The translations under genes and the position numbers were made by a program. The notes beneath the pieces were generated by a model. It was given only the letters and a program-made list of their open reading frames with translations. It was not told the DNA's origin and searched no databases. Shown here in pieces: positions 2,509 through 63,297 of a DNA stretch of 64,000 nucleotides. The stretch is taken from assembly GCA_036874045.1 (NCBI GenBank), contig CM072335.1, forward strand, positions 14,404,001 to 14,468,000, written 5' to 3'. Source of the DNA: Cymodocea nodosa (lineage: Eukaryota; Streptophyta; Magnoliopsida; Alismatales; Cymodoceaceae). The number at the start of each line of letters is the position of its first letter. Position 1 is the first letter of the stretch.

Positions 2509-2515
2509 AGTTTTC

Positions 2516-2533
2516 TAGCGCCGTTACTGAGGA
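2516..2533 (+). other. E1 primer-binding site (tRNA-Asp type)
   Basis: TAGCGCCGTTACTGAGGA, a decayed form of the Athila primer site TGGCGCCGTTGCCGGGGA, complementary to the 3' end of tRNA-Asp. It lies 7 bp inside the 5' LTR. E2 at 22886 keeps a closer match. Confidence 0.8.
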
Positions 2534-2614
2534 TTGAGAAGTTAAGCAACTGTGAGTGCTATTTTATTTTAATAGCAAAGGGAGTGTTGTGTGTTTTATT
2601 TTATAATTAAGAGT

Positions 2615-5600
2615 ATGGCATATGCTTATGCTCAAAGATTTCTAAAACCTATAGTTAGCATATGTGAATTCTGCAATTTGGAGGTTATGACATCTCTAAT
2701 TGTTTGAAATTGAGACGATTGCAAATGGTTAGATCACATGAACAACAAATGAATTATATTCAATATAATAAAGCGGAGTATAAGTATACTATAGTTTACC
2801 CAACTAATAGTCAGTTTAGAATGTGTAATATGTTGAGCGACAAGGAAGTTTGGGATAGGTATGATAAATTGGAGCGTAGCCTAGACCAAAACATGGACAA
2901 ACTAGAACAATACATGTGTCAGTAACAAGAAGTCAACCAATTAAACTATAGGGAAGAATATTCAGAACCTAAAATTGATATCATATACGAAACTAAAAAA
3001 ACAACAATGAAAATTGATCAAAATTTGAATGCAATGAGATTAGATGATCTGGAAAGAAAACTAAAAGCATTGGATGAGTTTACAATGAAAACTTTAATGT
3101 TACAGATTTGCATAATTTGCAAGACATATAGAAAAAGAGAATACCAATGCAATAGAATTTAAAGAATGTAAGTTAAAACTAAAAACTCTTGAAGATCGAA
3201 ATTATGAAAATGAACTACAAGAACATCCTAAAAGTAATGAAAATCTAGAAGATGTATGTATAACATTAAGATCTGGAACTGATATACCACCAAGAATTCA
3301 AAAAGAAAGTGATATGAAGGTGGATAAGAAAAAATTCAAAATGAAAATGAAAATGTAATATCTGAACACCTAGAAATCAATGAAGAAAAATCTGAAAATG
3401 AGACTAAAAATGATCAAATAAATGAAATGAAAGAAAAAGAATCTTGTAAATCACAATCATTAGCACCCAATCCTGAAAGATTACAACAAACATTTCCTGA
3501 AAAATAAGAAAAAATTAGAGAAATTTTTGAAAAAGTACAAGTTAACATTCCTTTGTTAGACTTATTGTAGAAAATGCCACCTTATACTAAATTTCTTAAG
3601 GATTGGTGTATTAAGAAAAGAGAGCAAAAAGTTTTAAGGAAAGTATTTTTAGCTGAGCAAAGTAGTTCTCTATTTCTGTCACAAATTCCTAAAAGTTATC
3701 TGATCTTGAAATCCCTATTATATCATGCACCATAGGAAATACCATTCTAGAAAGGACCTTAATAGACCTAAGTGTAGGTATAAATGTTATGCTGAGTGAT
3801 ATATTTGCATTCTTAGGATTAGAAGGTTTTAATCTCTACTAGGACTGTTATTCAATTAGTTGATAGAAGTATAAGATACCCTAGAGGAAAAATAGAGGAT
3901 GTCCTAATTAAAATCAAAAACTTCATATATCCTATTAATATTGTGATTTTGGATTCTCAACAAATGAAGCATCAGAATCATGATATATTTTTAATTTTGG
4001 GGAGGTCATTCTTAGCAACATCAGGGGTTGTTATAAATTGTAAAACTAGAGTGATGAAGTTAGCATATGGTAATGAGGATACTCAATTAAACATTTTCAA
4101 ACCAGAAAAGTTTGAGGAGTTAGAAATGTCCTTACATACTATAGAGGATGAAGGAGTTTTTAGAGGATGAAGTAGTTTTTAGAGGATGAAGGAGATACGA
4201 TGATGATGTGATTCAAGAAGAACTAAATAGGCAACTAAATTCTAAAACTTTAGAAGTAAGTGAAAGCATAAATGTAGAAGGAGATCAAGAAGAGTTTAGT
4301 ATTGAAGATGAAAATGTTCAATTAGGAGCTCTAGCTTTTGATGGTTAACATTTAGATTTAAAACCTTTACCTCCTGAATTAACCTATATATTTTTGAAAG
4401 AAAAATGATCATGTCCAATCAGATTTAAAAGAGGATCAAATTTCTAAATTAAAAGATATAGTAAAAACTTATAAAGAAGCAATAGGATAGACTATGACTG
4501 ATATAAAAGCGTTAAGTGCAACTTTATGCTGTCACCATATATATTTAGAAGAGAATGCTAAATCAGTTAGAATTCCTAAGAGGAGATTAAATCCAAACCT
4601 TAAAGAAATATTCAGGAAGGAAATAATGAAATGGTTAGATAATGACATAATTTATCCAATTTCTGATAGCTTATCGGTTAGTCCAATCCATGTAGTTCTT
4701 AAGAAATCAGGATTAACAGTTATTAGGAATGAAAGTGAGGACTTGATACCTACTAGAATTCAATTAGGCTAGAGAGTGTGTATAGACTATAGAAAGCTGA
4801 ATGTTGTAACTAGAAAAGATCATTTTCTCTTACCTTTTATAGATCAAATGCTAGAGAAATTAGTAGGGCAAGAATATTTTTGTTTCCAAGATAGGTATTC
4901 AGGATATAATCAAGTTCTAGTAGCATTAGAGGATCAAGAGAAAACAACTTTCACATGTCCTAATGGAACTTATGCTTTTAAGAGAATGTCATTCAGATTA
5001 TGGAATGCACCAGCCACCTTTTAAAGGTGTATGTAGAGCATATTCACTAGAATGACTGAAGATTTTTTAGAAATATTTATGAATGATTTTATTATATATG
5101 GAACATCATATGAAGTGTGTTTAAACAATTTAGACCAAGTATTAAAACGTTGTGTGGAAAAAAATCTGGTTCTAAATTGGGAAAAATGTCACTTCATGGT
5201 TAAACAAGGAATAGTCTTAGGACATGTTTTAAAGAAAGGGTTGGAAGTAGATAAAGCTAAAATAAAAGTAATTTCTAATCTACCGGAACCTAAATTAGTA
5301 AAAGATATTACATCATTTCTAGGACATGCTAGATTTTATAGAAGATTTATTAAAGATTTTAGTAAAATAGCTAGACCTTTAACTAATCTATTAAAAGATG
5401 TCTCATTCAACTTTAATAAAAATTACAAAAAAGCATTTTTGAAGCTTAAGACTAACTTAATTTCAACTCCTATAATACAAGCACTTGATTGGAGCCATCC
5501 ATTTGAATTAATGTGCAATGCATCTGATTTTGTTGTAGGAGTAGTGCTGGGACAGAAGATAGAAAAATCTTCTAGAGTGATTCATTATACAAGCAAAACA

Positions 5601-6886
5601 TTAAATGATGCTCAAGTTAATTATACAACTACTGAAAAAGAGCTATTAGCTGTTGTATTTTCCTTAGAAAAGTTTAGATCATATCTAATTGGAGCTAAAG
5701 TGATATTATACACAGATTATTCAACTTTAAAATACCTGATAGCAAAGAAAGAGACTAAACCTAGATTGATTCGATGGATATTATTATTACAAGAATTTGA
5801 TCTAGAAATTAAAGATAAAAAAGGTTGTGAGAATGTAGTAGCAGATCATTTATCAAGATGACAAATAGAGAAATCAAACATTGAAATTAAGGATAATTTT
5901 CCTAATGAACAATTAATGATCATCAACACAATGCCTTGGTATGCAGACATAGTTAATTACTTAGTTACCAGTTTAACACCTAAGGATTGGAATAGACAGG
6001 ATAATAAATTGTTCTTTCAAAAGTAAAATATTATTATTGGGAAGACTCATACTTATTTAAGAAATGTCCTGATCTGGTTTTAAGGTGTATTCTAGAAACT
6101 GAATATCAAAGCATATTGTCTTTCTGCCATGACCAAGCATGTGGAGGGCATTTTGGTTCAAGGAAAACTGCTGCTCAAATTCTGCAATGTAGATTTTATT
6201 GGCCAACACTATTCAAAGATGCTCATAAATACTACTTAAGTTGTTTAAGATGTCAACAAATAGGAAGAATATCAAAGAGAAATATGATGCCTTTGAACCC
6301 TATTATTGAGGTTGAAATCTTTGATGTGTGGGGAATAGATTTTATGGGTCTATTTCCTACATCTAATCAATTTAATTATATATTGTTAGGGGTGGATTAT
6401 ATATCTAAATGGATAGAAGCTATTCCTACAAAAACTAATGACAACAAAGTGATAATACATTTTATAAGAATTAATATAATTGCCAGATTTGGAATACCTA
6501 AAGTTATTATTAGTGATAGAGGAACTCATTTCTGTAATAGAAGTTTTGAAGCCTTAATGAAGAAATATGGAGTAAATCACAAAATTACATTATATCATTT
6601 GCAAACAAGTGGACAAGTAGAAAGTGCAAATAAATAAATTAAGTTAATCTTAGAAAAAGTAGTAAATCTTACTAGAACAGATTGGGCTAATAGATTAATA
6701 GATGCACTTTGGGCTTATAGAACTACTTATAGGACAAGCTTATGTATGTCACCTTTTAGACTAGTATATGAAAAAAGTTGTCATTTACTAGTTGAAATTG
6801 AACATAAGGCTTATTGGGCATTAAAAACTCTGAACACTAATTTAAATCAAGAAGTAAGAGTAGAGGACTACTCAAGCTTTACTTAG
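2615..6886 (+). pseudogene. pol: E1 pol: zinc knuckle, protease, reverse transcriptase, RNase H, integrase
   Basis: The gene starts about 80 bp after the primer site at an ATG giving M-A-Y-A-Y-A-Q-R-F. It opens with a CCHC knuckle-like motif near 2663. Domains follow in normal Ty3/gypsy order: aspartic protease (about 3680-4130, L-A-Y-G-N-E-D), reverse transcriptase (about 4490-5390, with I-D-Y-R-K-L-N and the catalytic F-M-x-D region near 5085), RNase H (about 5500-5860, [10 protein letters not shown]), and integrase (about 6110-6680, H-D-Q-A-C-G-G-H-F, C-L-R-C-Q-Q, I-S-D-R-G-T-H-F, G-Q-V-E-S-A-N). It ends E-D-Y-S-S-F-T. The sequence is Athila-like throughout. No capsid domain precedes it; the capsid gene is at 10864. 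The gene has many breaks, roughly ten. Confidence 0.88.
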
Positions 6887-7596
6887 TAAGAAATTATCTA
6901 AATATTAAAAAAAAGACTTTTTTAAACTTAGTCATAGTTCAACCGAAAGAAATTATTTGTTTTACCAAAATATATATAAAAAGAAAAAATTGTTGCGGTT
7001 CAACCAACAAGATCCATCGGTCTGACCGAAACATAAAAACATAAAAAAAATATTGAGTAAAATGTTGATTTTACCGAGGCATAATATTGGTTCAACTGGT
7101 AGAAAAAAAGGTATTTAATTTCGATTCAATCAAGGAATATAACGATTTGATCGAAATTCTAAAATATTGAAAAATTAAGAGTCGGTTAGATTCGAAATTC
7201 TTCGGTCTTGATCGAATTAAAAATTATTATTATAAGTATATTCTTTTTTAGTTATAACTTTATAGGAAGTCCGTTGAGTTATGCTTAACTCAACGAACTT
7301 ACTCCGTTGAGTCTAGGATAAGTTAACAAACTTACTCTATTGAGTTAACTGTAACTCAACAGAGTACTGTAGTTAAGTCCACAAACTTAGTCCATGGAGT
7401 TAACCATAACTCCACGGAGAAGTGAGTGAGAGAGCGAGAGTTTATGCGGGAAAATGACTCGATTACCTTCCAAAAACTTAGGGTTTATTTATACTAAAAC
7501 ATAGGATTTGGGAGCATTATCTATAGAATCATTTATAACTTAGAACAATAGAGATCAGAGTGATTCCGTTCCATTCCGTCACACCACGAAGACAAG
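6887..7596 (+). promoter_or_regulatory. E1 pol-ORF1 spacer with putative ORF1 promoter
   Basis: Two blocks are visible. From 6930 to 7230 short units built on GGTTCAACCGA and TCGGTCTGACCGAAAC recur. From 7255 to 7425 come inverted repeats of the type CCGTTGAGTTA / TAACTCAACG and a CTCCACGG variant. Then, just before the ORF1 start, GAGAGAGCGAGAG, the E2F-like site GCGGGAAAA (7446-7454), a reversed telo-box TTAGGGTTT (7478-7486) and a TATA-like TTATTTATAC (about 7485-7494). The same order is kept in E2, EM and E3. That looks like an internal promoter for ORF1. Confidence 0.55.
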
Positions 7597-9817
7597 ATGA
7601 CGCTTAAGTTTTGGGAGGAAGTTGACACCATGAGATTTTTCAAAGAATCAGAAGAATGGCATACAAGACAAAAGATCAAGAACACGACAGGAAAAAGAAC
7701 TAGAAAAGGTAAAATTTGATATTTTCTACTAGAGGAAAGTTTTAGTAAATTTAGATATTAAAATACCTTAGATTGTGGAAATGAGGATTAAAGTAGCAAC
7801 AAAAGTTGCTGTAAATAGAGAGAAAAATAAGACTAAACAACGAGGTTGCCCTAGAATTAATCTGGCGCAAGTCATGACTTTGGTTTACAAGACATATTGC
7901 TAGACATGCCTAGTGGGAAATCTGGGAGCAACAAAGGAAGACAATTGAAGAACCAGTAGTAGAAATGCCGGCTATAACAATAGAACAAGCAAGATCTTCA
8001 GTTCCACTAACAGAACTATTACCATGAGTAACATTTGCTTAGCTAAGAACTGAAGAAGAAGACAAGGAGTTTGCTAGCTTAGTCAAAATGGCAAAAGACC
8101 AAGGAGATGAAGAAATGGCTATGGCCAAGGCACATATTCTGTATGATGCTATAAAGAAAAGGTGGGCTGAAGAAAAGTTAAGGGCCTAGTATAAAATTAA
8201 AGTTAAACAACATCAAGAAGCAGCTAGATTAATGGCTACAAAACAAATTGAAGCTGGTCCTTTGAGACTAGTAATTATAGAAAGAGTAAAACAGGAAGAG
8301 ATAGTACTTGTGGCTCAAGGGCCTGCAGAGCTTGTTTTTTTAGATTTAATCTCAATGGAGGAAGAGGAAGACCAGGCACACCTATTTAGAAGAAGGAAAG
8401 GAAAAGAGATAGTGCCTGAAGTTCTAGTAGAGATTAAACCTGAGCCTAGAATATTAGTAGGGCATGTAGAGCCCATTTTTGTGGATTTGCTATTTGAATC
8501 TGAGGAGGAGCAGAAACAGTAGTAGCAAGAGCAAAGAGAAGAAGAAAAACAGGCTGAAATTAATCTACAACCTGTATAAATAGAAGAAACTAAAGTTAGG
8601 GCTGAAGCTGATTTATCCGTAATTCCATCCCAATCTGCCATAGAATTAGAAAGAACAATGACAATGTAGATTGGTAGTCAGGAGGAAAAAGAAAGAGAAG
8701 AAACTGAAGAAGAAGCTAAACAAGAACATATGGAACAAGGAGAAAATGACTCAAAATATTCCACTAAAGAGGGAAAGACTCTTCAGCAAATTTTTGAGAG
8801 AATTCAAGAAAGAAGAGTGGAGAGTTCTGTCGGCTCTCCACCATAGATAAAAAGAGGAGATGAAATATAGGAATCTCCGGATCATTTCCAACAAGCTCAA
8901 GTTTAGCAAATTGAGGAAGAAATTCAAGAACAAACCCCTCTAGAGTAACAAATTCAAATTCCTGACCCGGTTGAAGCAACAGTTCTAAATGAAGTATACT
9001 TTTGGAGTTAAGAAGCATATAATAAATATCAAGAGATTAGGGGCTATGATATTATATATAATAGACCAGTAAACTAGGACGGTATGAATGACATTAAAGA
9101 ATTATTTGAGTTCCAAGGTCTACTACAATTTATTTCTCAATAGAGAGGGCATGCTGTATATGAAAATTAAGTGCCCTATTTTTATGCAAACATGAGAGAG
9201 GAAGAAGGAAATTTAATTTCTAACATGGAAGAAGTTAATGTACAGATAATGCCTTCTCCATAACATTGTTAGATTGAAAAATGAAGGGATAGAAATTTTG
9301 GAGAGCACAACTGTAGTCGAGTGGACAGAAAAAAGAAGAAGAAGAAGACAGTTTAGCTATCAATCCTGGTGTGCCATTATTAGATAGATTGAAGTACTTA
9401 AATGGTGAAACACACATGATAGCTAACATTTTGATTAAAAATGTCTACCAACGACAAGGTCATGATATTGAACTAAGTTAGTTTGTTAAATGGGCCACAT
9501 ATGCAGTTGTGAACAGAATTCAAGTTAATTGGTCTTCAGTTTTTATCTCCAAGTTGAGAGTAGCAAAGAAGAAACTATTTTATGGAGATCTAATTCTACT
9601 ACTGATGATAGATAATATTGACTTCACGAAATGAACATCCAAAAGGATAAGATCTAGAGCCATTTCAGTGAAGGAATACAAAAATTATAATGCTACAACT
9701 GTTGAGATAATTGGACCTTTTAGAGACATTATAGGAGCTGTTGAACGTATAAATCAATTGGAACAACAACTAGAAAAGCTCTAGAAGGAAATAGATGAAC
9801 TTAGGAGGAAGGACTAA
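7597..9817 (+). pseudogene. E1 ORF1 (ATHILA ORF1-like)
   Basis: Homology runs from an ATG (M-T-L-K-F-W-E) to a stop after L-R-R-K-D. An N-terminal charged, probably helical region (7597-7900) and a second helical stretch (about 8060-8270) are followed by a repeated motif: E-L-V-F-L-D-L-I-S then an acidic run (8328-8372), and E-P-I-F-V-D-L-L then acidic residues (8469-8510). Each is paired with a basic patch (R-R-R-K-G-K-E) or a glutamine-rich run. The C-terminal third (about 8960-9800) holds the conserved plant transposon domain (F-Y-A-N, F-x-F-Q-G-L-L). No signal peptide or membrane segment is visible, so it does not look like an envelope. It has roughly ten breaks. Role unknown. Confidence 0.75.
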
Positions 9818-10863: not shown

Positions 10864-12213
10864 ATGAGCACATGGATTTGTTCTCCTAGTACTAAACGAT
10901 TAGTAAGAACACCTACACAGGATTATTCAACATAGAGGCATATTAAAATATTTTCTAAATTGGACTTTAACGAAATCCTTAGGGGTGTAGCTAACCTTTC
11001 TTTAAAAGAAAACGAAGATATGGCTGCTCCAGTAGAAAAACCATTAGAGGAAATTCTATATCCTAAACTAATTGATGAACCTTTATGGATTCGATTGCCA
11101 AACTTTGAGAGAGATAGGTTCGAACTAAAATCTAATTATATTAGTCAATTACCACACTTCCATGGATTAGAAAGAGAAGATGCAGATTATTTCTTTAAAG
11201 AATTTAACGAAGTTTGTCAAATGATGAAAATGTCAAACATGAGTATTGATGCTATTAAACTTAGATTATCCCTTTTGCTTTAAAAGACACACCTAAGAGA
11301 TGGTTATATACTCTGTCGCTTGATTCAATTTCTACATAAACTAAATGTTGCTCTATTTTTTTGGAAAAATATTATCCAACATGTCAAATGATTAAAAAGA
11401 AAAAGGAAATATTAATGTGTAGCCAAAAATTGGGAGAATCATTTTGGAAATATTTTGAAAGATTTAAAGATTTACTAACTCAATGTCCACATCATGCAAT
11501 GAGTAAAGCACAATTAATAGCTATAATTTATGAAGGTATAGATGTTTCAACGAAATCTTTATTAGAATCTACTTATCAGAATGGATTTTTAAAACTATAT
11601 AGTGAAGAAGCATAGGCATATTTAGAAAACTTTGCATAAAGAACTACATAGTGGGAAAACTCAGTTGAAGCTATTATAGATAAAAGAATATTGCCAAGGG
11701 GAATGCATGAAATAGATTCAAGTACTATGCTTGAAGTTAAATTAACTGAGTTAACAAAGAAAATAGAAGAGTTATCATTAAATCAAAAGCTAGCAGAAAA
11801 GAATGCAAACATTAATGACTTAGATATTATTTATGCTAGAAACTAGAAAGATAACTTTGGAAATTCTTATAACCCTAATTGAAGAAATCACCCGAACCTA
11901 TTATGGAGAAATAATAATTTCTAGGGAGGAGAAAATATAAATGACAAAAATATAAATTATGAAACATTAATTGAACAAGGATCTAGAATAGAGAAGTTAG
12001 AAAAGATAATTCAACAATTAAACAATCGTCTAGATCATGTATTTGGAAATGTTGCCATTTAAAATCAAAATATGAATAGAAATATACCCCCTTAAATAGA
12101 AGGAATCAATAGAAGTTAGACGTACTAGAAGATTGCCAATGCAAACAATACCTAACCCTATCAATAGAACTATTAATGAAATTGATACCTCCTATGGGAG
12201 GGAAGTTGAATGA
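10864..12213 (+). pseudogene. gag: E1 gag (capsid), downstream of pol and ORF1
   Basis: The start is taken at ATG 10864 (M-S-T-W), because a conserved leader peptide S-T-K-x-L-V-R-T-P-T-Q follows in E1, E2 and E3. The Athila capsid region follows: L-P-H-F-H-G-L-E-R-E-D, F-K-E-F-N-E-V-C-Q-M-M-K, R-W-L-Y-T, F-L-E-K-Y-Y-P, C-P-H-H-A-M-S-K-A-Q-L. A C-terminal N-R-N-H-P-N-like, W-R-N-N region and a heptad-like stretch (E-Q-G-S-R-I-E-K-L-E-K) come next. No zinc knuckle is visible here; a knuckle sits at the start of pol. Normally gag precedes pol. The gene has several breaks. Confidence 0.85.
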
Positions 12214-12432
12214 AGTAGTATAACTAAAGTAACTATATATAATATAGTAAGTAGAAAAATATAAAAAGAAAAAAATGAAAGTTTAATTGTAGTTAGTAGT
12301 ACCATAGAGTTATTACTTAACTCAACGAACTTAGTTCGTTGAGTTATAACCTAACCCCACAAGAGTATGTAAGTAGCTATATTAATTTTACCTCTACTTA
12401 AATTTTGTTTATATTATACAGAATCACAACAG
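12214..12432 (+). promoter_or_regulatory. E1 gag-F-box spacer with candidate splice acceptor
   Basis: A run of A-rich sequence is followed by an inverted-repeat pair (12324-12345, AACTCAACGAAC / GTTCGTTGAGTT). Then comes a short stretch that reads like a small intron or its 3' end: GTATGTAAGTA at 12365 and TTATATTATACAG ending at 12421, 11 bases before the F-box start. The 56-57 nt spacing is shorter than usual plant introns, so the acceptor may instead be used from a distant donor. Confidence 0.4.
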
Positions 12433-13570
12433 ATGGAATTAATGAAATTACCACTAGATGCACTAAGGGAAGTCTTGAGTAACTTATCAGCTAAAAATAT
12501 GTGTAGATTGTGTTGTGTGTTAAAGGAAATTAAAGAATGTGTCAAAGAAAAATATTTTCATGAACTACAAGCTACAAAAATGACTAATATTAGAGAGATT
12601 TTTATGGAAGTCATTTAATCGTAGTTCAATCAGCTATGAATATCTGAATATGGAAGAAACTGCTGGAATTTCACCTAATACATTAGAAGGAATAGATCAT
12701 ATTATGGGGATAGATGAAAGATTAATTATTTACAGAACTAAACCAAGATATGCAATTCTGTTACTCAATATTTTGATTAGAAATCTTATCACTAGAGAAG
12801 AATGGAATATAGGAAGGTCTAATAGATTTAAAGTACCAACTAAAAATTGTGGGTCGGCTTTAACATTTTCTAATAAAAATTCGACCATTCCTCAAAAATT
12901 GTATTACTGGAGATCAACTAGAAATTGGGATGAAGATTTATATTTAAGTTTGTATAATTTTCTGAATAGAGCTTGGATTGAAAATACTATGGTATATCTA
13001 GGACAGAAAGCATTAATTAACAACATACATGTCATACTTGATGGATATATATATTTAGTGTCAGATATATTAGTTGCATTTAGATCTGATTTATACATAG
13101 TAAGCATAGATAATTATGATGATGATTTTATAGAAATATTGTCTATACCTAGTGATATAGATAAACCACCATCTGCAGAACATGATAAATTTCAATTAGG
13201 AATGTGGTATAATAAATATGATGATCCTACTTTATGTCTGATAAGATGGTGGGATGAAATGATAAAATTTCAAATATGGATTATGAAAGACCTAAATGAA
13301 TGGAAGTGGGAAGAGGAATATATTGAAATATATGTAGAAATACAAACAACTACATTATCTTGGAACAAAAAAGGAATCCTTTCTGCATTTCAATTCATTA
13401 ATGGTAATACACTTATAATTAGTATTGATAACATACTGCAAGTTTACAAGTTAAAAAGGAAAATAGATTGCATTAAAATAGAATTAATAGCAAGAAGAAT
13501 TATGCTTAAAAAGTTTGCTTGGACCAACACGTTTATTCTATTTGTCACTACTTTTCAATCATGTTCTTAA
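12433..13570 (+). pseudogene. E1 F-box protein with F-box-associated domain
   Basis: The gene begins M-E-L-M-K-L-P-L-D-A-L-R-E-V-L-S-N-L, followed by R-L-C-C-V and K-E-I-K. That is the F-box pattern (residues about 5-45), which binds Skp1 in SCF ubiquitin ligases. The C-terminal half reads as an FBA-type domain: I-E-I-L-S-I-P-S, L-C-L-I-R-W-W, the I-W-I-M-K-D-x-N-E-W-K-W core, then L-S-A-F-Q-F-I-N-G-N-T-L and L-Q-V-Y-K-L-K. Full homology is about 375 residues, usual for plant F-box/FBA proteins. FBA domains generally recruit the substrate. It lies between gag and the 3' spacer on the same strand. It is nearly whole, with about one break. Domain calls are from motif reading only. Confidence 0.8.
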
Positions 13571-14240: not shown

Positions 14241-14511
14241 ATTCATCTATTCCTTCTAATGTATTTGGTGGAATTTCAGCATTTTCTTTCATATTCAGAT
14301 ATTCATAGCTGATTGAACTATGATTAAATGACTTCCATAAAAATCCATCTCTAATCTTAGTCATTTTTGCAGCTTGTAGTCAATGAAAATATTTTTCTCT
14401 AACACAGTCTTTAATTTCTTTTGACACACAACACAATCTAAATAGATCTTTAGCTGATAGGTTATTCAGTATTTCCCTCAGTGCATCTAGTGGTAATTTC
14501 ATCAATTCCAT
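14241..14511 (-). pseudogene. EM F-box gene, N-terminal part
   Basis: From ATG at 14511 (minus) it reads M-E-L-M-K-L-P-L-D-A-L-R-E-I-L-N-N-L then L-F-R-L-C-C-V-S-K-E-I-K-D-C-V-R-E-K. This is the clearest F-box sequence in the window. It ends where EM abuts E1, so no FBA domain is present in this copy. The upstream side shows the same intron-like GTAAGTAAG...TTATACAG (14579-14523) as in E1 and E3. Confidence 0.75.
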
Positions 14512-14731: not shown

Positions 14732-15151
14732 TCATTCAATTTCCCTCCCATAGGAGGTATCAATTTCATTAACAGTTCTATTGACAAGGTTAGGTACTAC
14801 TTGCATTGGCAATCCTCCAATAGGTTTAACTTGTATTGATTCCTTCTATCTAAGGGGTATATTTCTATTCATATTTTGATTTTGAATGGCAGCATTTCCA
14901 AATACAAGATCTAGACAATTGTTTAATTATTGAATTATCTTTTCTAACTTCTCTATTCTAGATCCTTGTTCAATTAATGCTTCATAACTTATATTTTTGT
15001 CATTTATATTTTCGTCTCCTTGGAAATGGTTATTTCTCCAAGATAGATTCGGGTGATTACTCTAATTAGGGTTATAAGAATTTCCAAAGTTATCTTTCTA
15101 GTTTCTAGCATAAATAATATCTAAATCATTAATGTTTGCATTCTTTTCTAC
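14732..15151 (-). pseudogene. gag: EM gag, C-terminal part
   Basis: Minus-strand homology to the end of gag: the N-A-N-I-N-D-L-D region, the N-H-P-N-like W-R region, the E-Q-G-S-R-I-E-K-L heptad stretch and the final I-N-E-I-D. The capsid core is not present in this copy; gag borders the front part of ORF1 directly. Broken. Confidence 0.7.
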
Positions 15152-15697
15152 TAATTTCCTTGGATGTTGGCAACTTTAACAAGCTCTACAAATTCTTTCC
15201 ATTCTTCTAGCGTTGATGGCCCCAAAAATGCTGCTCTTTCTATCGGCCTTGGCAGTAGAATGGATGATCCTGGCTACTGTTCCTCAGTAATTGGTCTTTC
15301 AACAGCCTTGCAACTACAGCTGGCATTTCTACTACCGGTTCTATAGCAGCTTTCCTTTGTTGCTCTTAGATTGCCCACCGGGCATGTCCACCAATATGTC
15401 GTACAAACCATAATCTGGACTTGCACTGGATCAATTCTAAGGCAACTTCATTGTTTGGCCTAATTTTTCTTTCTCTATTCACAACAACTTCTATTGCTAC
15501 TTTAATCCTAGTCTCCACAATCTGAGGTATGGTAATATTTAAATCTACTAAGACTTTCCTCCAATAGAAAATGTCAGATTCTACCTTTTGGAGTTCTTTT
15601 CCCTCATTGTGTTCCTGATCATTTATCTCATATGTCATTCATTTGATTCTCTAAGAAATCTCGTGGTGTCTATTTCCTCCCAAATCTCTAGCGTCAT
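15152..15697 (-). pseudogene. EM ORF1, N-terminal part
   Basis: From ATG at 15697 (minus, M-T-L). It holds the conserved charged N-terminal region (E-L-Q-K-V-E-S-D-I-F, V-E-T-R-I-K-V-A-I-E-V, N-N-E-V-A-L-E-L-I-Q) and the start of the second helical stretch. The C-terminal transposon domain and the SIM-like motifs are not present. Broken. Confidence 0.72.
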
Positions 15698-16428: not shown

Positions 16429-19400
16429 CTAAGTAAAGCTGGAGTAGTTCTCTACTCTTACTTCTTCTATAATTCCAAAGGAACTTTTTGGAATCTTCAG
16501 AATAGATCCAAGTCTTTGTCCATTTACTTTAAATATATTCTGATTTTTAGAATTTTCAATTTCAATAGCTCCATGGGAATAAATATTTCGAATTATTTAA
16601 GGTCCTGCCCATCTAGATCTTAATTTTCCTAGATGTTTATGGAGTCTAGTCATGTAAAGATATACTTCTTGTCCTATTTCAAAGGTTTTTGGAATAATTT
16701 TCTTGTCATGCCAGAACTTCATTTTCTCTTATAGTTTTTGAATAAGCTTCATTCCTAAATTCTTCTAATTCAATCAATTGCATTTTCCTATTTTTAGTAG
16801 CTTGATTTAAATTAGTGTTAAGAGTTTTTAATGCCCAATAAGCTTTATGTTCAATTTCAATTAGTAAATGACAACTTTTTCCATATACTAGCCTAAAAGG
16901 TGATATACCTAAGCTTGTCTTATAAGTAATTCTATAAGCCCAAATGCATCTATTAATCTATTAGCCTAATCTTTTCTAGTAGGATTTACTACTTTTTCTA
17001 AGATTAACTTAATTTGTTTGTTTGCACTTTCTACTTGTCCATTTGTTTGCAGATGATATGATGTTGCAATTTTGTGATTTACTCTATATTTCTTCATTAA
17101 GGCTTCAAAACTTCTATTACAGAAATGAGTTCCTCTATCACTGATAATAGCTTTAGGTATTCCAAATCTGGAAATTATATTAGTTCTTATAAAGTGTATT
17201 ACCACTTTGTTGCCATTAGTTTTTGTAGGAATAACTTCTATCCATTTATATACATAATCCACCCCCAACAATATATAATTAAATTGATTAGACATAGAAA
17301 ATGGACCCATAAAATCTATTCCGCACACATCAAAGATTTCTACCTTAACAATAGGATTGAGAGGCATCATATTCCTCTTTGATATTCTTCCTATTTGTTA
17401 AAATCTTAAACAACTTAAGTAGTATTTATGAGCATCTTTGAATAGTGTTAGCTAATAAAATCTACATTGTAGAATTTTGGCAGTAGTTTTCCCTGAACCA
17501 AAATGCCCTTCACATGCTTGGTCATGGTAGAAAGACAATATGCTCTGATATTTAGTTTCTGAAACACACCTCCTTAAAACCATATTAGAACATTTCTTAA
17601 ATAAGTATGGGTCTTCCCAATAGTAATATTTTACTCTTAAAAAGAACAATTCTTATCCTATCTACTCTAATCCTTAGGTGTTAAACCAATAACTAAGTAA
17701 TTAACTATGTTTGCATACCAAGGCATTATTTTGATGGTCATTAATTGTTCATCAAGAAAATTATCCTTAATTTTAATATTTGATTTTTCTATTTGCAATC
17801 TTGATAAATGATCTGCTACTACATTCTCACAACCTTTTTTATCTTTAATTTCTAGATAAAATTCTTGTAATAATAATATCCATATGATCAATCTAGGTTT
17901 AGTCTCTTTCTTTGCTATTAGGTGTTTTAAAGCTGAATGATCCGTGTATACTATCACTTTAGCTCCAATTAGATATGATCTAAACTTTTCTAAGGCAAAT
18001 ACAACAGCTAACAGCTCTTTTTCAGTAGTTGTATAATTAACTTGAACATCATTTAAGGTTTTGCTTGTATAATGAATCACTCTAGGAGATTTTTCTATCT
18101 TCTATCATAACACTGCTCCTACAGCAAAATCAGATGCATTGCACATTAATTCAAATGGATGGCTCCAATCAGGTGCTTGTAATATAGGAGTTGAAATTAA
18201 GCTAGTTTTAAGTTTGAAAAATGCTTCTTTGCAATTTTTATCAAAGTTGAATGGGACATCTTTTAATAGATTAGTTAAAAGTCTAGCTATTTTGCTAAAA
18301 TCTTTAATAAATCTTCTATAAAATCCAGTATGTCCTAGAAATGATCTAATATCTTTTACTAATTAAGGTTCTGGTAAATTAGAAATTACTTCTATTTTAG
18401 CTTTATCTACTTCCAACCCTTTCTTTGAAACAATATGTCCCAAGACTGTTCCTTATTTAACCATGAAGTGACATTTTTCCCAATTTAGAACTAGACTTGT
18501 TTCCACACAACATTTTAATACTTGGTCTAAATTGTTTAAGCACACCTCATATGAAGTTCCATATATAGTAAAATCATCTATAAATATTTCTAAAAAATCT
18601 TCAGTCATTCTAGTGAATATGCCTTGCATACACCTTTGAAAGGTGGCTGGTGCATTGTATAATCTGAATGACATTCTCTTAAAAGCATAAGTTCCATTAA
18701 GACATGTGAAAGTTGTTTTCTCTTGATCCTCTAATACTATTGGAACTTGGTTATATCCTAAATACCCGTCTAGGAAACAAAAATATTCTTACCCTGCTAA
18801 TTTCTCTAGTATTTGATCAATGAAAGGTAAGGGAAAATGATCTTTCCTAGTCATAGCATTCAGCTTTCTATAGTCTATACACACTCTCCAGCCTGATTGA
18901 ATTCTAGTAGATATCAAGTCCTAACTTTCATTCCTAATAACTATTAATCTTGATTTCTTAGGAACTACATGGATTGGACTAACCCATGAGCTATCAGAAA
19001 TAGGATAAATTATGTCATTATCTAACCATTTCACTATTTCCTTCCTGACTACTTCTTTAAGGTTTGGATTTAATCTCCTCTTAGGAATTCTAATTGGTTT
19101 AGCATTCTCTTCTAAATATATGTGGTGACAGCATAAAGTTGTACTTAACCCTTTTATATCAGTTAGAGTCCATCCTATTGCTTCTTTATAAGTTTTTACT
19201 ACATCTTTTAATTTAGAAATTTGATCTTCTTTTAAATCTGAAGTAATAATGATTGGACATGTTCCTTTTTCTTCCAGAAATATATAGGTTAATTCAGGAG
19301 GTAAAGGTTTTAAATCTAAATATTGCCCATTAGAAGCTAGAGCTCCTAATTGAACATTTTCATTTTCAATATTAATCTCTTCTTGATCTCCTTCTATATT

Positions 19401-20315
19401 TATGCTTTCACTTACTTCTAAAGTTTTAGAATTTAGTTGCCTATTTAATTCTTCTTGAATCACATCATCTAGCATATCTCCTTCATCCTCTAAAAAGTTT
19501 ATAGTATGTAAGGACAATTCTAACTCCTCAAACTTTTCTAGTTTGAAAATGTTTAATTGAATATCCTTATTACCATATGCTAACTTCATCACTCCAGTTT
19601 TACAATTTATAACAGCCATTGATGTTACTAAGAATGGTCTTTCCAAAATTAAAGATGCATCATGATTTTGATGCTTAATTTGTTGGGAATCCAAAATCAC
19701 AATATCAATAGGATATATGAAGTTTTCAATTTTAATTAGGACATCATCTATTTTTCCTCTAGAGTATCTTATACTTTTATCAGCTAATTGAATAACAGTC
19801 CTAGTAGGGATTAAGCCTTCTAATCCTAAGGATGTAAATATATCACTCGGCATAACATTATACCTACACCTAGGTCTATTAAAGTTCTTTCTAGAATGGT
19901 ATTTCCTATGGTGCATGATATAACAAGGATTCTAGGATCAGATAACTTTTTAGGAATTAGGTTCTAAATATTTCTCCCTATAGTTTAATTGATTGACTTC
20001 TTATTGTTGACACATGTATTGTTCTAGTTTATCCATGTTTTGCTTTAAGCTACACTCCAATCTGTCATACCTATCCCAAACTTCCTTGTCTCTCAACATA
20101 TTACAAATTCTAAACTGACCATTAGTTAGGTAAACTATAGGATTCTCATACTCAGCTCTATTATATTGAATATAATTCATTTGTTGTTCATGTGATCTAA
20201 CCATCTACAATCGTCTTAGTTTCAAACAATCAGAGATGTCGTGACCTTCTAAATTGCAAAATTCACATATGCTAAATACAGGTTTCAGAAATCTTTGAGC
20301 ATAAGCATATGCCAT
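16429..20315 (-). pseudogene. pol: EM pol
   Basis: The minus-strand gene starts M-A-Y-A-Y-A-Q-R-F with C-x-F-C knuckle-like residues near 20265. Protease is at about 19910-19480 (I-Q-L-A-D-K-S-I-R-Y, L-A-Y-G-N-K-D). Reverse transcriptase is at about 19150-18300 (P-K-R-R-L-N-P-N-L-K, I-D-D-F-T-I-Y-G). RNase H is at about 18180-17800 (T-D-H-S-A-L-K-H-L). Integrase is at about 17560-16950 (H-D-Q-A-C-E-G-H-F, I-S-D-R-G-T-H-F, G-Q-V-E-S-A-N-K-Q). The 331-residue stretch 19916-18921 is the longest open protease-to-RT reading in this copy. It has roughly eight breaks. Confidence 0.87.
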
Positions 20316-20396
20316 ATTCTCAATTATAAAATAAAACACACAACACTCCTTTTGTTATTAAAACAAAACAGCACTCACACTTACTTAGCTTCTCAA

Positions 20397-20668: not shown

Positions 20669-22878
20669 TGTTTAGAATGAAAAAGTGCATATTATTAACA
20701 GTTAAATGATGGTTAATTGCATAATATTTAGTTTATCATATAAGAATTAAGCCGTTATGTCATAATTACATTGTTATACGCTTTAATTGAAGAATTTGCT
20801 TAATTTGGGGGAATTAATGTTAATTTAGTACATTTATGAACTATCGGTAAGTTGCAAGTTGTGAAATTCTTAAGTATCTGAATTTTCAGATATTTCAGAC
20901 AATTATGTTTAACATACCGAACATATTTAGACAGTTATTTTTAACAGACCGAACATGTATTTGATAGTTATGTTTAAATTGCCGAACAGTTATGTTTTGA
21001 GAGAATATTTTATTATTTCCTAAAGTACACGTGTCGAAACCATAATGAATGACTTAAGTGAACTTTCGGTGAGTTATCTATAACTATTCGAAATTGCAGT
21101 TGGGCATCGAGGAGTTATCACTGTAACTTTCCGAAATCTCTTTTTATTTATAAAATAGCTGAGAACACATGTCATATTCTGGAAAAGTGACTTAAGTGGA
21201 TTTTCGGTGAGTTAGCTGTAACTATCCGAAATGCAGCTAAGCATCAAATAGTTAGACCTGTAACTCTTCGAAATATTATTTTATGATTAAACTGCTGTTG
21301 ACACGTGTCGAGATCTGGTAGATTTACTTAAGTTATATATCAGTGAGTTATTTGTAACTATCCAAAATGCATCTGAGCATCAGATAGTTAAGTTTATAAG
21401 TATCCGAAATGCACCTGAGCATCGGATAGTTAAATTTGTGCACGTGTTTTATAGTTAAATCAATGAAGAAAGACCGTTGAGTTATCTGTAACTCCATAGA
21501 ATATATATTTTCTAATATGCCACTGTAGTGATTGCAAGAACAGATAGTTGGAAGAGAAAAACCATGTTTGCACGTATCACGCAGGAATTCAATCGTGTAG
21601 GGAGAAGAAAGCATCGCCGTTGATATGAATGAAGGAAATCCAACCGACCATTCAAGCAGAAGCAGTTACTACTGAAGAAATATAGAAGAAAAGAAGAAAA
21701 AAAAAAGTGTGTGATCGATGGGCGGACAGTGTGTGCAGAGGAGGATCGGCGATACAATTCTCTGAAGTACCACACCAACCATCATCATCACCATCACCAT
21801 CACCACACCATAATCACCAACCATCGGAGGTCTGTGAGGATACTTGCCTAATGTCGGGTCGATTCCGAGCCAAACACAATGCTTGACAACTATTGTGAGG
21901 AGTGATCGCGTCGCACGAAGGGAAGCCATTTTCACCAAGCGCCGACTCATATTTCGGGAGATCGTAAAGCTGTTAGCCTTGGCTTCGGGTTGATGCCTGT
22001 ATGCTGAAGAGAAGATTATCTTGCAATTCTGGACTCACGATTCTATAGGGAGAGGAGATAGAATTTTAAGTGGTTTAATTTTCAATGGTGTAATCGCGTT
22101 GCAAGTAGTGTCGGAAGTATTTAATGTCAAGTGAGATTACTTTACATTTCACCTTTCGCCCATTTCCATGTTCATATTAAAACAAAAATACCAAAAACAA
22201 TTTATCTATGTTTGTATGTTGTATTTGAGTGTTGTATTGTTTGTGTTATATCGTGATTAATGTTACATTTGTAAGTGTTGTGATTGTTTTATGTTTATTT
22301 TAGTTTTACAGTTTATTGAAATTGGTTTATTCAAAAGACTTAAAGATTTTAATGGTTACTGTTTGAATTATCTGAATGTTAGTATTGCTCAATGATAAAT
22401 CCAATGTTAACTAACATTAAATAGCTTAATTGATGTTATTTACAATCTATGGAATCGCCCAATGGTTGGTCGAATTCCTTTGTAGATAGCAGTATTAAAT
22501 AGAAAAGACAGGCTCGTGGAGTTGACTTAAGTCCACGAGGTTAGTCCGTTGAGTTATCCATAACTCAACGAACTTAGTCCGTTGAGTTAGCTGTAATTCA
22601 ACGGAGAGCTTATTGAATATATAAATTTGATTTTTAACAAGCAAACAGTTCTCAAGTTCGTCAGCAATTCCCTATGGGATCGACCTGTACTTGCATACTG
22701 ATACAATAGACACTGTGCACTTGCAGTTAAAGTACAAATTGGAATTAATATCTAAATTATATTAAAGGTTGTTTGTTTACTTCTAAAAGAAAGAATAGGC
22801 ATAAAGATAAATTAACTAAGTAGAAACAGAAGTAACAAATCCAAGTTTTTCTAGTGTAGTGCTGGGAAAACCCAAACA
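20669..22878 (+). repeat. E2 5' LTR (2210 bp)
   Basis: TGTTTAGAATG to CCCAAACA. U3 holds repeated TAACTATCCGAAAT-type inverted repeats and CACGTGTC boxes (21029, 21301, 21441). A TATA-like AAATATAGAAG lies near 21678. The repeat TCACCATCACCATCACC near 21788 is a simple-sequence stretch in R/U5. Inverted repeats GTTGAGTTA / TAACTCAAC cluster at 22515-22605. Confidence 0.92.
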
Positions 22879-22885
22879 AGTTTTA

Positions 22886-22903
22886 TGGCGCCGTTGTCGG
22901 GGA
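22886..22903 (+). other. E2 primer-binding site (tRNA-Asp type)
   Basis: TGGCGCCGTTGTCGGGGA, one mismatch from the standard Athila site, 7 bp after the LTR. Confidence 0.92.
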
Positions 22904-22992
22904 ATTGAATTGAATTGAATAGATATAAGCAATTGTTAGAGCTGTTTCGTTTAATAACCAAAGTTGTGTGTTTTTTTTTTGTAATTGAGAAT

Positions 22993-25900
22993 ATGGCATA
23001 TGCTTATGCTCAAAGATTTTTGAAACATATAATTAGCATATGTGAATTCTACAATTCTGAAGGACACGACATTTCTGATTGTTTGAAATTCAGACATTTA
23101 CACATGGTTAGATCCCATGAACAACAAATGAATTATCCTCAATATAATAGAGCCGAGTATGAGAATCCTATAGTTTACCCAACTGATGGTCAGTATAGAA
23201 TGTGTAATATGATGAGAGACACTAAAGTTTGGGATAGCTATGACAGACTAGAGCATAGTATAGACCAAAATCTGGACAAACTGGAATACTTTATGTGTCA
23301 ACAACAAGAAGTCAACCAATTAAACTATAAGGAAGCATATTCAAAACCTAAATAGGATATAATTTATGAAACTGAAAAAACCATAAAGAAAATTGATCAA
23401 AAATTGAATGCAATGAAATTAGATGATCTAGAAACAAAATTAAAATCATTAGACAAAAATGCAATGAAAATACAAGTTATGAAACAAGACAATGAAAATT
23501 ATAATGTTATAAACCTGCATAATTTGCAAAATATACGGCAAACAGAAAACACCAATGCAAGAGAATTTAAAGAATGCACTTTAAAACTAAAAACAATTGA
23601 AGATTATAATCACGAAAATGATATACAAAAACATCATGAAAGTAACGAAAATCTGGAAGATGTATGTGTAACATTAAGATCTGGAACTAATATACCACCA
23701 AGAACTCAAAATGAAAATGATATGAAGGTGGATAAGAGTAAAAATCAAAACGATAATGAAAATGTAATAGCTGAAAATCTAGAAATCACTAAAGAACAAT
23801 CTGAATCTGCAAATGAAGCTAAAAATGATCAAACAAATCAACTGAAAGAAAAAGAGTCTTTGAAATCAAAATCTTTTAGCACCCTATCCTGAAAGATTAC
23901 AACAAACAATTCTTGAAAAACAAGAAAAAATTAAAGAAATTTTTGGAAAAGTACATGTTAACATTCCTTTGTTAGATCTATTGCAGAAAATGCCACATTG
24001 TGCTAAATTTCTAAAGGATTGGTGTACTAAGAAAAGAGAGCGAAAAGTTCTTAGAAAGGTCTTTTTAGCTGAGCAAAGTAATTCCCTATTTCTGCCACAA
24101 ATTCCTAAAAAGTTATCTGATCTTGGAATCCCTATTATATCATGCACCATAGGAAATACCATTCTAAAAAAAACTTTAATACACTTAGGTGCAGGTATAA
24201 ATGTTATGCCAAGTGATATATTTGCATCCTTAGGATTAGAAGGCTTAACTCCTACTAGTACGGTTATTCAATTAGCTGATAGAAGTATAAGATACCTTAG
24301 AGGAAAAATAGAGGATGTCTTAATTAAAATAAAAAATTTTATATATCCTATTGATATTGTAATTTTGGATTCCCAACAAATTAAGCATAAAAATAGTGAT
24401 ACATCTTTAATTTTGGGAAGGCCATTTTTAGCAATATCAAGGGCTGTTATAAATTGTAAAACTGGAGTAATGAAGTTAGCATATGGTAATGAGGATACTC
24501 AATTAAATATTTTCAAACCAAAAAGGTTTGAGGAGTTAGAAATGTCCTTACATACCATAGACTTTTTAGAGGATGAAGGAGATATGTTAGATGATGTGAT
24601 TCAAGAAGAACTAAATAGGCAAATCAATTCTGAAATTTTAAAAGAAAGTGAAAGCATAAATATAGAAGGAGATTGGGAAGAAATTAATTTAAAAAATGAT
24701 GATGTTCAATTAGGAGCTCTAGCTTCTGATGGGCAGCATTTAGAATTAAAACCTTTACCTCCTGAATTAACCTATATATTTCTGGAAGATAAACGAACCT
24801 ATCCAATCATTATTGCTTTAGATTTAAAAGAGGATCAAATAGCTAAATTAAAAGATGTAGTAAAAAGTTATAAAGAAGCAATAGGATGGACTATGATTGA
24901 TATAAAAGGGTTAAGTTCAACTTTATGCTATCACCACATATATTTAGAAGAGAATGCTAAACCTGTTAGAATTCCTAAGAGGAGATTAAATCCAAACCTT
25001 AAAGAAGTAGTCAGGAAGGAAATAGTTAAATGGTTAGATAATGATATAATTTCTGATAGCTCGTGGGTTAGTCCAATCCATGTAGTTCCCAAGAAATCAG
25101 GATTAACAGTTATTAGGAATGAAAGTCAAGACTTGATACCTACTAGAATTCAATCAGGCTAGAGAGTATGTATAGACTATAGAAAGCTGAATGCTGTGAC
25201 TAGGAAAGATCATTTTCTCTTACCTTTTATAGATCAAATGCTGGAAAGATTAGCAGGGCAAGAATATTTTTGTTTCCTAGATGGGTATTCAGGGTATAAT
25301 CAAATTCCAATAGCATTAGAGGATCAAGAGAAACAACTTTCACCTATCCTAATGAAACTTATGCTTTTAAAAGAATGCCATTCGGATTATGAAATGCGCC
25401 AGCTACCTTTCAAAGGTGTGTGCAGGGCATATTTACTGGAATGACTGAAGATTTTTTAGAAATATTTATGGATGATTTTACTATATATGGCAACTTATAT
25501 GAAGTGTGTTTAAGCAGTTTAGACCAAATATTAAAATGTTGTGTGGAAAAGAATCTGGTTTTAAATTGGGAAAAATGTCACTTTATGGTTAAACAAGGAA
25601 TAGTCTTAGGGCATGTTGTTTCTAAAAAAGGGTTGGAAGTAGATAAAGTTAAAATAGAAGTAATTTCTAATCTACCAGAACCTAAATCAGTAAAAGATAT
25701 TAGATCATTTCTTGGACATGTTGGTTTTTATAGAAGATTTATTAAAGACTTTAGCAAGATAGCTAAACCTTTAACTAATCTATTAAAGATGTTCCATTTA
25801 ACTTTGATAAAATTGCAAGGAAGCATTTTTCAGACTTAAGACTAGCTTAATTTCAACTCCTATAATTCAAGCACCTGATTGGAACCATCCATTTGAGTTA

Positions 25901-31366: not shown

Positions 31367-31535
31367 ATGAGCACATGGACTCGTTCTCTAAGCACTAAAC
31401 AATTAGTAAGAACACCTACCCAGAAATTTTCATTGTAGAGGAGTACTGAAAAATTTTCTGAACTAAACTTTAACGAAATTCTTTGGGGTGTAGCTAACCT
31501 TTCTTTAAAAGAGAACGTAGAAATGGCTGCTTTTC
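31367..31535 (+). pseudogene. gag: E2 gag, N-terminal remnant
   Basis: M-S-T-W-T at 31367, then S-T-K-Q-L-V-R-T-P-T-Q and F-N-E-I-L-W-G-V-A-N-L-S-L-K-E-N, matching the gag start in E1 and E3. The capsid core is not present in this copy. Confidence 0.75.
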
Positions 31536-31536
31536 A

Positions 31537-31630
31537 AACAGAATTAATAGCAAGAAGAACTATACCTAAAAAGTTTGCTTGGACTGACACATTTATTCCA
31601 TTTGTTTCTACTTTTCAATCATGTTCTTAA
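31537..31630 (+). pseudogene. E2 F-box gene, C-terminal remnant
   Basis: Encodes only the tail: E-L-I-A-R-R-T-I-P-K-K-F-A-W-T-D-T-F-I-P-F then S-T-F-Q-S-C-S and stop, nearly identical to the ends of the E1 and E3 F-box genes. It shows that the E2 lineage also carried the gene. Confidence 0.75.
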
Positions 31631-33404: not shown

Positions 33405-33420
33405 TTAGGTATGGGGGAAG
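33404..33420 (+). other. E2 polypurine tract
   Basis: TTAGGTATGGGGGAAG immediately before the TG of the 3' LTR; plus-strand primer site. The E1 (36871-36886) and E3 (63281-63297) tracts match. Confidence 0.88.
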
Positions 33421-50418: not shown

Positions 50419-50613
50419 ACATGCAAAGAAGAATTAATCTAGAAAGCATAAACGTAATATAAACTTTTCTCTTGTACATAAACGTAATACAACACTTGAA
50501 TCTTTGAGAAATAGCTTTGTTGCTGTTGAATTCCTCTAGATGACTTTGAGCTCTCGTTCTCCAAGAATCTTTAAGTTTTCTAAGAATTTTTCTCTAGAGT
50601 ACTATTTAACACA
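50419..50613 (-). repeat. Copia 5' LTR, U3 start
   Basis: Remaining part of the copia LTR. On the minus strand it starts near TGTTAAATAGTACTCTAG. The exact right end is uncertain by a few bases because it directly abuts the LTR of element B. Confidence 0.55.
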
Positions 50614-50617
50614 TTTT

Positions 50618-63280: not shown

Positions 63281-63297
63281 TTTAAGTAAGGGGGAAG
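63281..63297 (+). other. E3 polypurine tract
   Basis: TTTAAGTAAGGGGGAAG immediately before TGTTTAGAATG. Confidence 0.8.

What the first reader, a model, noticed from the sequence alone, without database searches (positions are those of the whole stretch)
12433..13570. Retrotransposon-borne F-box/FBA gene, found in two element families
Five places (12433-13570, 14241-14511, 31537-31630, 61315-62454, 54408-54786) carry the same gene at the same position, between gag and the final polypurine tract, on the element strand. The front has the F-box pattern and the back an FBA-type domain. Element B shares it at only about 40 percent identity, so capture was old and the gene was kept through long element history. 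F-box genes are plentiful in plants but are not a standard Athila part. Polerovirus P0 is an F-box protein that removes AGO1 (established); a similar anti-silencing role here is inference.
Basis: partly seen in the sequence, partly recalled or inferred. Interest (0 to 1): 0.93.

Follow-up and report, generated by a model that had tools for sequence, protein, structure and literature searches.

The report
F-box gene carried by plant retrotransposons
A plant jumping gene of the Athila kind carries, in several copies, an extra gene whose front end is an F-box (the part that hooks a protein onto the cell's protein-disposal machinery), which may mean the element disposes of a plant protein that stands in its way.

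Summary
All five places carry one gene or a part of it, on the element strand, 3' of the gag capsid ORF. The front is a true F-box: PF00646, 33.8 bits, E 2.7e-8 at 61315-61605; 28.1 bits at 12433-12618; cut-off 20.5. In the back half no Pfam family reaches its cut-off, and two searches of a protein collection rich in plant retroelement RT found nothing (control); the donor stays unknown. Element B's back half is 34-40% identical, with fewest changes at second codon positions (61/40/73 of 126 codons, p 0.008) and pN/pS 0.50-0.57, intervals below 1: an old gene kept as protein. Between recent copies selection cannot be told from decay. Also, the capsid ORF or its remnant lies 3' of pol in the three pol-bearing copies. 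The surveys I looked into do not mention F-box. Best reading: an accessory gene for an SCF substrate adaptor. Silencing machinery as target is inference, about one in four. No other plant genome could be searched.

The parts
525..2515 (+). copy 1: 5' LTR (starts TGTTTAGAATG; end approximate)
   Evidence: blastn self-comparison; sequence read
2594..6851 (+). copy 1: zinc-knuckle-like ORF, protease, RT, RNase H, integrase block; no capsid match
   Evidence: blastn and tblastn; Pfam RT_RNaseH E 3.5e-34 on 5052-5858; rve E 1.9e-14 on the homologous ORF 26678-27079
7564..8291 (+). copy 1: ORFs homologous to 56443-57177 (weak DUF3287-like)
   Evidence: tblastn; DUF3287 15.9 bits on 56443-56814, below cut-off 27
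8949..9454 (+). copy 1: Transposase_32-like ORF
   Evidence: tblastn to 29551-30063; PF20167 16.9 bits there and 20.2 bits on 57954-58184, below cut-off 45
10936..12210 (+). copy 1: gag capsid ORF (broken), 3' of pol
   Evidence: tblastn to 59828-61093; PF03732 Retrotrans_gag 30.8 bits, E 3.4e-7 on 59852-60337
12318..12346 (.). palindrome with 12-bp stem of the ACTCAACG/CGTTGAGT motif between gag and F-box
   Evidence: read; motif clusters
12433..12618 (+). copy 1: F-box domain
   Evidence: PF00646 28.1 bits, E 1.7e-6
12650..13570 (+). copy 1: 306-codon C-terminal ORF of the F-box gene without stop; no known domain
14245..14511 (-). copy 2: first 89 codons of the F-box gene, one stop; cut at 14236 where two inverted elements meet
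   Evidence: tblastn 80.9% identity to 61315-61602; blastn break at 14236
14735..15157 (-). copy 2: C-terminal part of the 3'-placed gag
   Evidence: tblastn
16801..20336 (-). copy 2: zinc-knuckle-like ORF to integrase block
   Evidence: blastn and tblastn
20669..22885 (+). copy 3: 5' LTR (end set by the PBS)
   Evidence: 20666-22178 is 93.2% identical to 33418-34924; PBS next to it
22886..22903 (+). copy 3: Athila-type primer-binding site, 1 mismatch to a recalled tRNA-Asp-type pattern
   Evidence: 0 matches in 100 shuffles
22915..27247 (+). copy 3: zinc-knuckle-like ORF, protease, RT, integrase block; no capsid match
29551..30066 (+). copy 3: Transposase_32-like ORF
31439..31627 (+). copy 3: start of the capsid ORF joined by a deletion to the last ~30 codons of the F-box gene
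   Evidence: tblastn; blastn break at 31531/31533; read
33413..33420 (+). copy 3: polypurine tract just before the 3' LTR (33421)
   Evidence: read
54384..54786 (-). element B: C-terminal part of the F-box gene with a stop inside, interrupted by copy 4
   Evidence: tblastn 37.9% identity, E 9.5e-24; LTR of copy 4 starts at 54789
50600..52585 (-). element B: 3' LTR (start TGTTTAGACTT after a PPT-like stretch; inner end approximate)
   Evidence: sequence read
54789..56086 (+). copy 4: 5' LTR, truncated; a deletion removed its end and the pol block
   Evidence: blastn
59828..61096 (+). copy 4: gag capsid region (two overlapping frames and a third ORF)
   Evidence: PF03732 E 3.4e-7
61315..62454 (+). 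copy 4: F-box gene, whole length, one colinear frame with six premature stops; F-box at 61315-61605
   Evidence: PF00646 33.8 bits, E 2.7e-8
63290..63297 (+). copy 4: polypurine tract just before the 3' LTR (63298 to window end)
   Evidence: read; LTR pair 90% identical

Best explanation
A real, old accessory gene of Athila-type Ty3/gypsy retrotransposons, coding for a protein of about 379 residues: an N-terminal F-box and a fast-evolving C-terminal half of unknown fold. Shown: the F-box (in copies 1, 2 and 4), the gene's place 3' of the capsid ORF, the presence of its back half in the diverged family B, and protein-level constraint between B and the others. Inferred: the F-box binds host SKP1 (ASK), so the protein is a substrate adaptor of an SCF ubiquitin ligase; the C-terminal half picks a target whose removal helps the element. 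The most likely target class is host silencing machinery, by analogy with polerovirus P0. Expression of the gene, perhaps from a spliced RNA like other ORFs 3' of pol, is inferred.
For: F-box above Pfam's gathering score in two copies; the pattern LP.DALRE[VI]L.NLS.K...RLCCV.KE in three copies. 306 codons without stop against a longest of 111 in 2000 Markov copies. Five of five element copies that I delimited and in which some of the stretch between gag and the 3' LTR survives hold the gene or a part of it. B against copy 1: changes at codon positions 1/2/3 are 61/40/73 over 126 codons, p 0.008; pN/pS 0.57 [0.43-0.75], 0.54 [0.39-0.73] with B as query, and 0.50 [0.36-0.68] for B against copy 4. 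F-box half between recent copies: 0.40 [0.21-0.96] and 0.38 [0.19-0.91]; a third, partly out-of-frame match 0.56 [0.34-0.91]. A likely 3' splice site just before the F-box ATG is conserved in the 3 of 3 copies aligned. Precedents, title and abstract start only: plant F-box protein FBW2 targets AGO1 (PMC9035678); polerovirus P0 has an F-box-like motif, binds SKP1 and targets AGO1 (PMC6593998).
Against: No tool tests SKP1 binding or a target. Every copy in the window is broken or partial. The C-terminal half of recent copies 1 and 4 shows no detectable constraint, pN/pS 0.73 [0.49-1.32], while three capsid pieces of the same pair give 0.25, 0.34 and 0.34 (two short gag end pieces gave 0.98 and 2.90, and the gag end of copy 2 against copy 4 gave 2.00); the copy 3 remnant gives 0.84 [0.53-1.35], of which only the last ~30 codons are really the gene. 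Shifted reading frames of the C-terminal pair 1-4 gave lower ratios (0.35, 0.40) than the true frame (0.71), and in the F-box half one of two shifted frames was as low as or lower than the true one, so this simple ratio is unreliable for young AT-rich copies; no shifted-frame control was run on B. B's F-box half is not in the window. No homolog found. Both structure models are of low confidence.
Confidence: 0.6

Rival explanations
1. Passenger: a host F-box gene was transduced once and is carried along without use, as host gene pieces in maize Bs1 are.
For: Transduction by LTR elements is known in plants (PMC7264820, first of three parts read; PMC13317346 passages). No constraint detectable between recent copies in the C-terminal half.
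Against: Same position in the diverged family B; coding pattern kept between families only 34-40% identical; no stop in 306 codons of copy 1.
Confidence: 0.15
2. Self-control: the F-box protein removes an element protein (Gag or integrase) or tunes particle maturation, rather than a host defence protein.
For: The gene follows the capsid ORF in copies 1, 2 and 4, and their remnants adjoin in copy 3 after a deletion; this suggests co-expression.
Against: Nothing specific; no interaction evidence of any kind.
Confidence: 0.15
3. Not a ubiquitin adaptor: the F-box serves only as a SKP1-binding or structural module (for example to stabilise the protein), as suggested for the P0-SKP1 interaction.
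For: PMC6593998 title and abstract start: the P0-SKP1 interaction stabilises P0 (listing).
Against: Most plant F-box proteins with a long C-terminal half are substrate adaptors (recalled).
Confidence: 0.1
4. Chance similarity to an F-box in AT-rich sequence.
For: The window is 30% G+C.
Against: E 2.7e-8 and 1.7e-6 in two copies, above the curated cut-off.
Confidence: 0.01

Closest known systems
Athila lineage of Ty3/gypsy (with env-like or other ORFs 3' of pol)
   Same: Athila-type primer-binding site in copy 3 (pattern recalled); RT up to 70% identical to plant proteins among the 120 listed; little room for the extra RNase H that marks Tat (PMC6317226) between the RNase H ORF (ends 5858) and the integrase ORF (from 6116); sense ORFs between pol and 3' LTR, as described for Athila (PMC7264820).
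   Different: F-box gene; capsid ORF 3' of pol while a zinc-knuckle-like ORF and protease stay 5'. Neumann et al. 2019 give Ty3/gypsy as GAG-PROT-RT-RH-INT and removed in every case elements with unexpected domain order (PMC6317226 passages).
LTR elements with acquired domains (PMD, G-patch, AIR1, AlkB-like 2-ODD, ArgoL2, B3)
   Same: A cellular-type domain gained by Gypsy elements (PMC9289625 section 12).
   Different: That screen of 121 angiosperm genomes reports 15 extra domains; the main text does not contain 'F-box'. The full chart in its supplement was not seen.
Polerovirus P0
   Same: A plant parasite's protein with an F-box-like motif that binds SKP1 (PMC6593998 abstract start).
   Different: No sequence relation was tested or is claimed; P0 belongs to an RNA virus.
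VANC anti-silencing proteins of VANDAL transposons
   Same: A transposon protein against host silencing, called sequence-specific (PMC10398659, PMC5735166: titles and abstract starts).
   Different: Proteins of DNA transposons (recalled); not compared with the F-box gene.
Maize Bs1
   Same: LTR element with host gene sequence (PMC7264820, PMC13317346).
   Different: Fragments of several host genes in one element; here one gene shared by diverged families.

Membership tests
F-box proteins (PF00646) | F-box domain above the gathering score | tested here: met
   33.8 and 28.1 bits against 20.5
F-box proteins (PF00646) | binding to SKP1 and assembly into an SCF ligase | not testable with these tools
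   bench test needed
FBA-type plant F-box proteins | F-box-associated domain in the C-terminal half | tested here: not met
   no FBA family at E<=10 for the 306-residue ORF, three cuts, the B piece and two pieces of copy 4; a very diverged FBA is not excluded
Athila lineage (Ty3/gypsy) | RT-RH-INT order and no additional RNase H | tested here: met
   RT/RH 5052-5858, integrase ORF from 6116: about 258 nt between
Athila lineage (Ty3/gypsy) | tRNA-Asp-type primer-binding site | tested here: met
   22886-22903, 1 mismatch, 0 in 100 shuffles; the only match in the window with up to 3 mismatches, so met in copy 3 alone; pattern and its tRNA recalled
Athila lineage (Ty3/gypsy) | placement in the Athila clade of an RT tree | not tested
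   no named reference set was at hand
Athila lineage (Ty3/gypsy) | GAG 5' of PROT-RT-RH-INT | tested here: not met
   capsid-ORF matches (E<=1e-3) only 3' of pol, in 3 of 3 pol-bearing copies, two of them with a remnant only
Viral suppressors of silencing of the P0 kind | suppression of RNA silencing through loss of AGO1 | not testable with these tools
   analogy only

The most novel reading that the evidence does not exclude
A lineage of plant retrotransposons encodes its own SCF adaptor that removes a host silencing protein, expressed together with a capsid gene that has moved to the 3' end of the element: a retroelement counter-defence by targeted protein disposal.
Probability: 0.25. Interest if true: 0.88.

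Novelty: new variant of a known kind. Interest (0 to 1): 0.66.

Why it matters
How plant LTR retrotransposons evade silencing is largely open (my judgement). An F-box gene kept across diverged families would offer a concrete, testable route: find the partner protein and one has a candidate host factor that limits these elements. The 3' capsid also suggests that surveys which discard elements with unexpected domain order (PMC6317226) may miss whole lineages.

Tried and rejected
FBA label: tested with Pfam on whole and cut C-terminal pieces, no FBA hit; the only match was ANAPC4_WD40 at E 0.17, below its cut-off, on one piece of copy 4. Donor search: 306-residue ORF alone (468 candidates, none at E<=0.01) and a 4-piece profile (2894 candidates, none at E<=10). 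The third search used the RT as a control: 7992 of the 7993 candidates scored passed E<=1e-10, and the 120 listed name many plants, so plants are held; but the host itself or a near relative may not be (best RT identity among the 120 listed 70%). Viral contigs: no relative for RT or F-box ORF. Structure models of the C-terminal half (pLDDT 30.2) and the F-box piece (39.7) were too poor, so no fold search was run. Alignment A1 misplaced the N-terminal pieces and was not used. F-box piece against PDB: best E 0.58, chance level. tRNA and Rfam scans: none. Chance similarity: rejected by E-value and by ORF length. The genome-contig scan and the sixth to eighth viral scans were not used.

Host species: not determined; a guess of a holoparasitic plant was searched in papers and dropped.

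Full report
What is there. The window is 30.3% G+C and made largely of nested Athila-like LTR elements; that it is plant DNA follows from the RT relatives. From the self-comparison and tblastn within the window I delimit five element copies relevant here. Copy 1 runs + from 525 to 14236. Copy 2 runs - from 36781, is split by copy 3, and ends at 14236, where it meets copy 1. Copy 3 runs + from 20669 to about 35000; its LTRs differ by K2P 0.068 over 1504 sites. Copy 4 runs + from 54789 beyond the window; its LTRs differ by K2P 0.104 over the first 701 sites, and it lost the pol block by a deletion. Element B runs -; its gene is interrupted by copy 4 at 54786-54789 and its 3' LTR starts at 52585. 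Copy 3's LTR is 72% identical to copy 1's over the first ~475 bases, but the stretch from mid-LTR through pol is 84% identical: copies 1-4 are near relatives, B is not.

The F-box. Pfam PF00646 matches 61315-61605 with 33.8 bits (E 2.7e-8) and 12433-12618 with 28.1 bits (E 1.7e-6); the gathering score is 20.5. The third N-terminal copy (14245-14511, -) is 81% identical to the first; it was not scanned itself. In copy 4 the whole gene is one colinear stretch of 1140 nt with six premature stops; in copy 1 a frame change separates the F-box from a clean 306-codon ORF. Random sequences of the same first-order composition reached 111 codons at most in 2000 trials.

The back half. No Pfam family at E<=10 for the 306-residue ORF, three cuts of it, the B piece and one piece of copy 4; another piece of copy 4 gave ANAPC4_WD40 at E 0.17, 12.6 bits against a cut-off of 22.9. 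PDB: none at E<=10. A collection of 5.8 billion proteins: none, alone (E<=0.01) or as a profile (E<=10), although the same collection gave 7992 hits for the element's RT, with many named plants among the 120 listed. The search needs shared 5-residue words, so a distant FBA relative may be missed. Both structure predictions failed.

Age and selection. B and copy 1 share the back half at 34-40% identity, depending on the alignment (37.9%, E 9.5e-24). Changes fall on codon positions 1/2/3 as 61/40/73 over 126 codons (chi-square p 0.008), the pattern of a protein-coding gene. pN/pS is 0.57 [0.43-0.75] for that comparison, 0.54 [0.39-0.73] with B as query, and 0.50 [0.36-0.68] for B against copy 4. 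The tblastn alignment favours matching codons, a small bias towards this result, and no shifted-frame control was run on B. Between copies 1 and 4 the back half gives 0.73 [0.49-1.32] and the F-box half 0.40 [0.21-0.96]; copy 2 against copy 4 gives 0.38 [0.19-0.91]; a partly out-of-frame match gives 0.56 [0.34-0.91]; the copy 3 remnant gives 0.84 [0.53-1.35]. Three capsid pieces of the pair 1-4 give 0.25, 0.34 and 0.34, two short gag end pieces 0.98 and 2.90, and the gag end of copy 2 2.00. Shifted frames of the pair 1-4 gave 0.40 and 0.35 against 0.71 in frame; for the F-box half one of two shifted frames was as low as or lower than the true one. Ratios from young, decaying AT-rich copies should therefore not be leaned on. 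The evidence for selection rests on the old comparison.

Position and gene order. In copies 1, 2 and 3 the block next to the 5' LTR holds a zinc-knuckle-like ORF (motif recalled; no Pfam support), protease (sub-threshold Pfam only), RT, RNase H and integrase, but no capsid match; the capsid ORF (PF03732, E 3.4e-7 on 59852-60337) matches only 3' of pol: broken but whole in copy 1, its end in copy 2, its start in copy 3. Between pol and capsid lie ORFs with weak, below-threshold resemblance to DUF3287 and Transposase_32. The F-box gene follows the capsid. Athila families in Arabidopsis include pol-less elements with gag and env, and recombination that moved pol between families (PMC2410132 passages); a pol-less ancestor that regained pol at its 5' end would explain the order (inference).

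Expression. Just before the F-box ATG a T-rich stretch ending in TACAG is conserved in the 3 of 3 copies aligned, and GTATGT/GTAAGT donor-like sites recur between the ORFs, though not in every copy. The donor nearest to it is about 55 nt away, probably too short for a plant intron (recalled), so any splice would start further upstream. No RNA data.

What is known. The review of extra ORFs (PMC7264820, first of three parts read; 0 occurrences of F-box in the listings), the 2019 survey (PMC6317226, passages; 0 occurrences), the 121-genome domain screen (PMC9289625, passages and section 12; 0 occurrences) and the 2026 review of gene capture (PMC13317346, passages; 0 occurrences) do not mention F-box. 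Of the 21 papers holding both 'Athila' and 'F-box' none is seen from its title or abstract start to describe such a gene. Supplements were not open to me. So: not found in print by these searches.

Mechanism. Shown: a conserved F-box gene of the element. Inferred, about 0.6: an SCF substrate adaptor. Inferred, about 0.25: the target is host silencing machinery. AGO1 can be removed through a host F-box protein (FBW2, PMC9035678, title and abstract start) and is targeted by P0, but PMC6593998 (title and abstract start) reports that the SKP1 link of P0 served P0 stability, which warns against reading too much from an F-box alone.

Limits. One window, one unnamed plant; no other genome could be searched; every copy here is broken or partial; B shows only the back half.

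Noticed in passing
2594-6851 and 10936-12210; 16801-20336 and 14735-15157 (-); 22915-27247 and 31439-31570: The gag capsid ORF or its remnant lies 3' of pol in the three pol-bearing copies, while a zinc-knuckle-like ORF and protease stay 5': a gene order against the usual GAG-PROT-RT-RH-INT.
   Followed up: partly
250-nt bins from 2000, 7250, 10250, 15750, 22500, 27750, 30750, 38500, 45750, 56000; palindrome 12318-12346: A motif (ACTCAACG...CGTTGAGT and variants) clusters mostly at LTR ends and between ORFs: 68 matches against a mean of 8 in 20 first-order Markov copies of the window, and 10 bins with three or more against 0. The bin at 45750 was not assigned to an element. It could be a binding site or promoter part.
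   Followed up: partly
53834-54112 (-): Element B has a further 93-codon lysine-rich ORF between its F-box gene and its LTR, with a splice-acceptor-like site before it; no Pfam family; one weak match elsewhere in the window, 38807-39013 (-), 26% over 69 residues, E 5e-4.
   Followed up: partly
about 14005, 32072 and 53450 (-): A second PPT-like stretch (TTGAGGACAATG or TTGGGGACAATG followed by a G-rich run) lies 3' of the F-box gene in copies 1 and 3 and in B; in copy 3 and B a further PPT follows next to the LTR.
   Followed up: no
38807-39939 (-): ORFs on the - strand, one resembling the DUF3287-like ORF by eye, one weakly matching the extra ORF of element B: remains of another element, perhaps of B's kind.
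   Followed up: no
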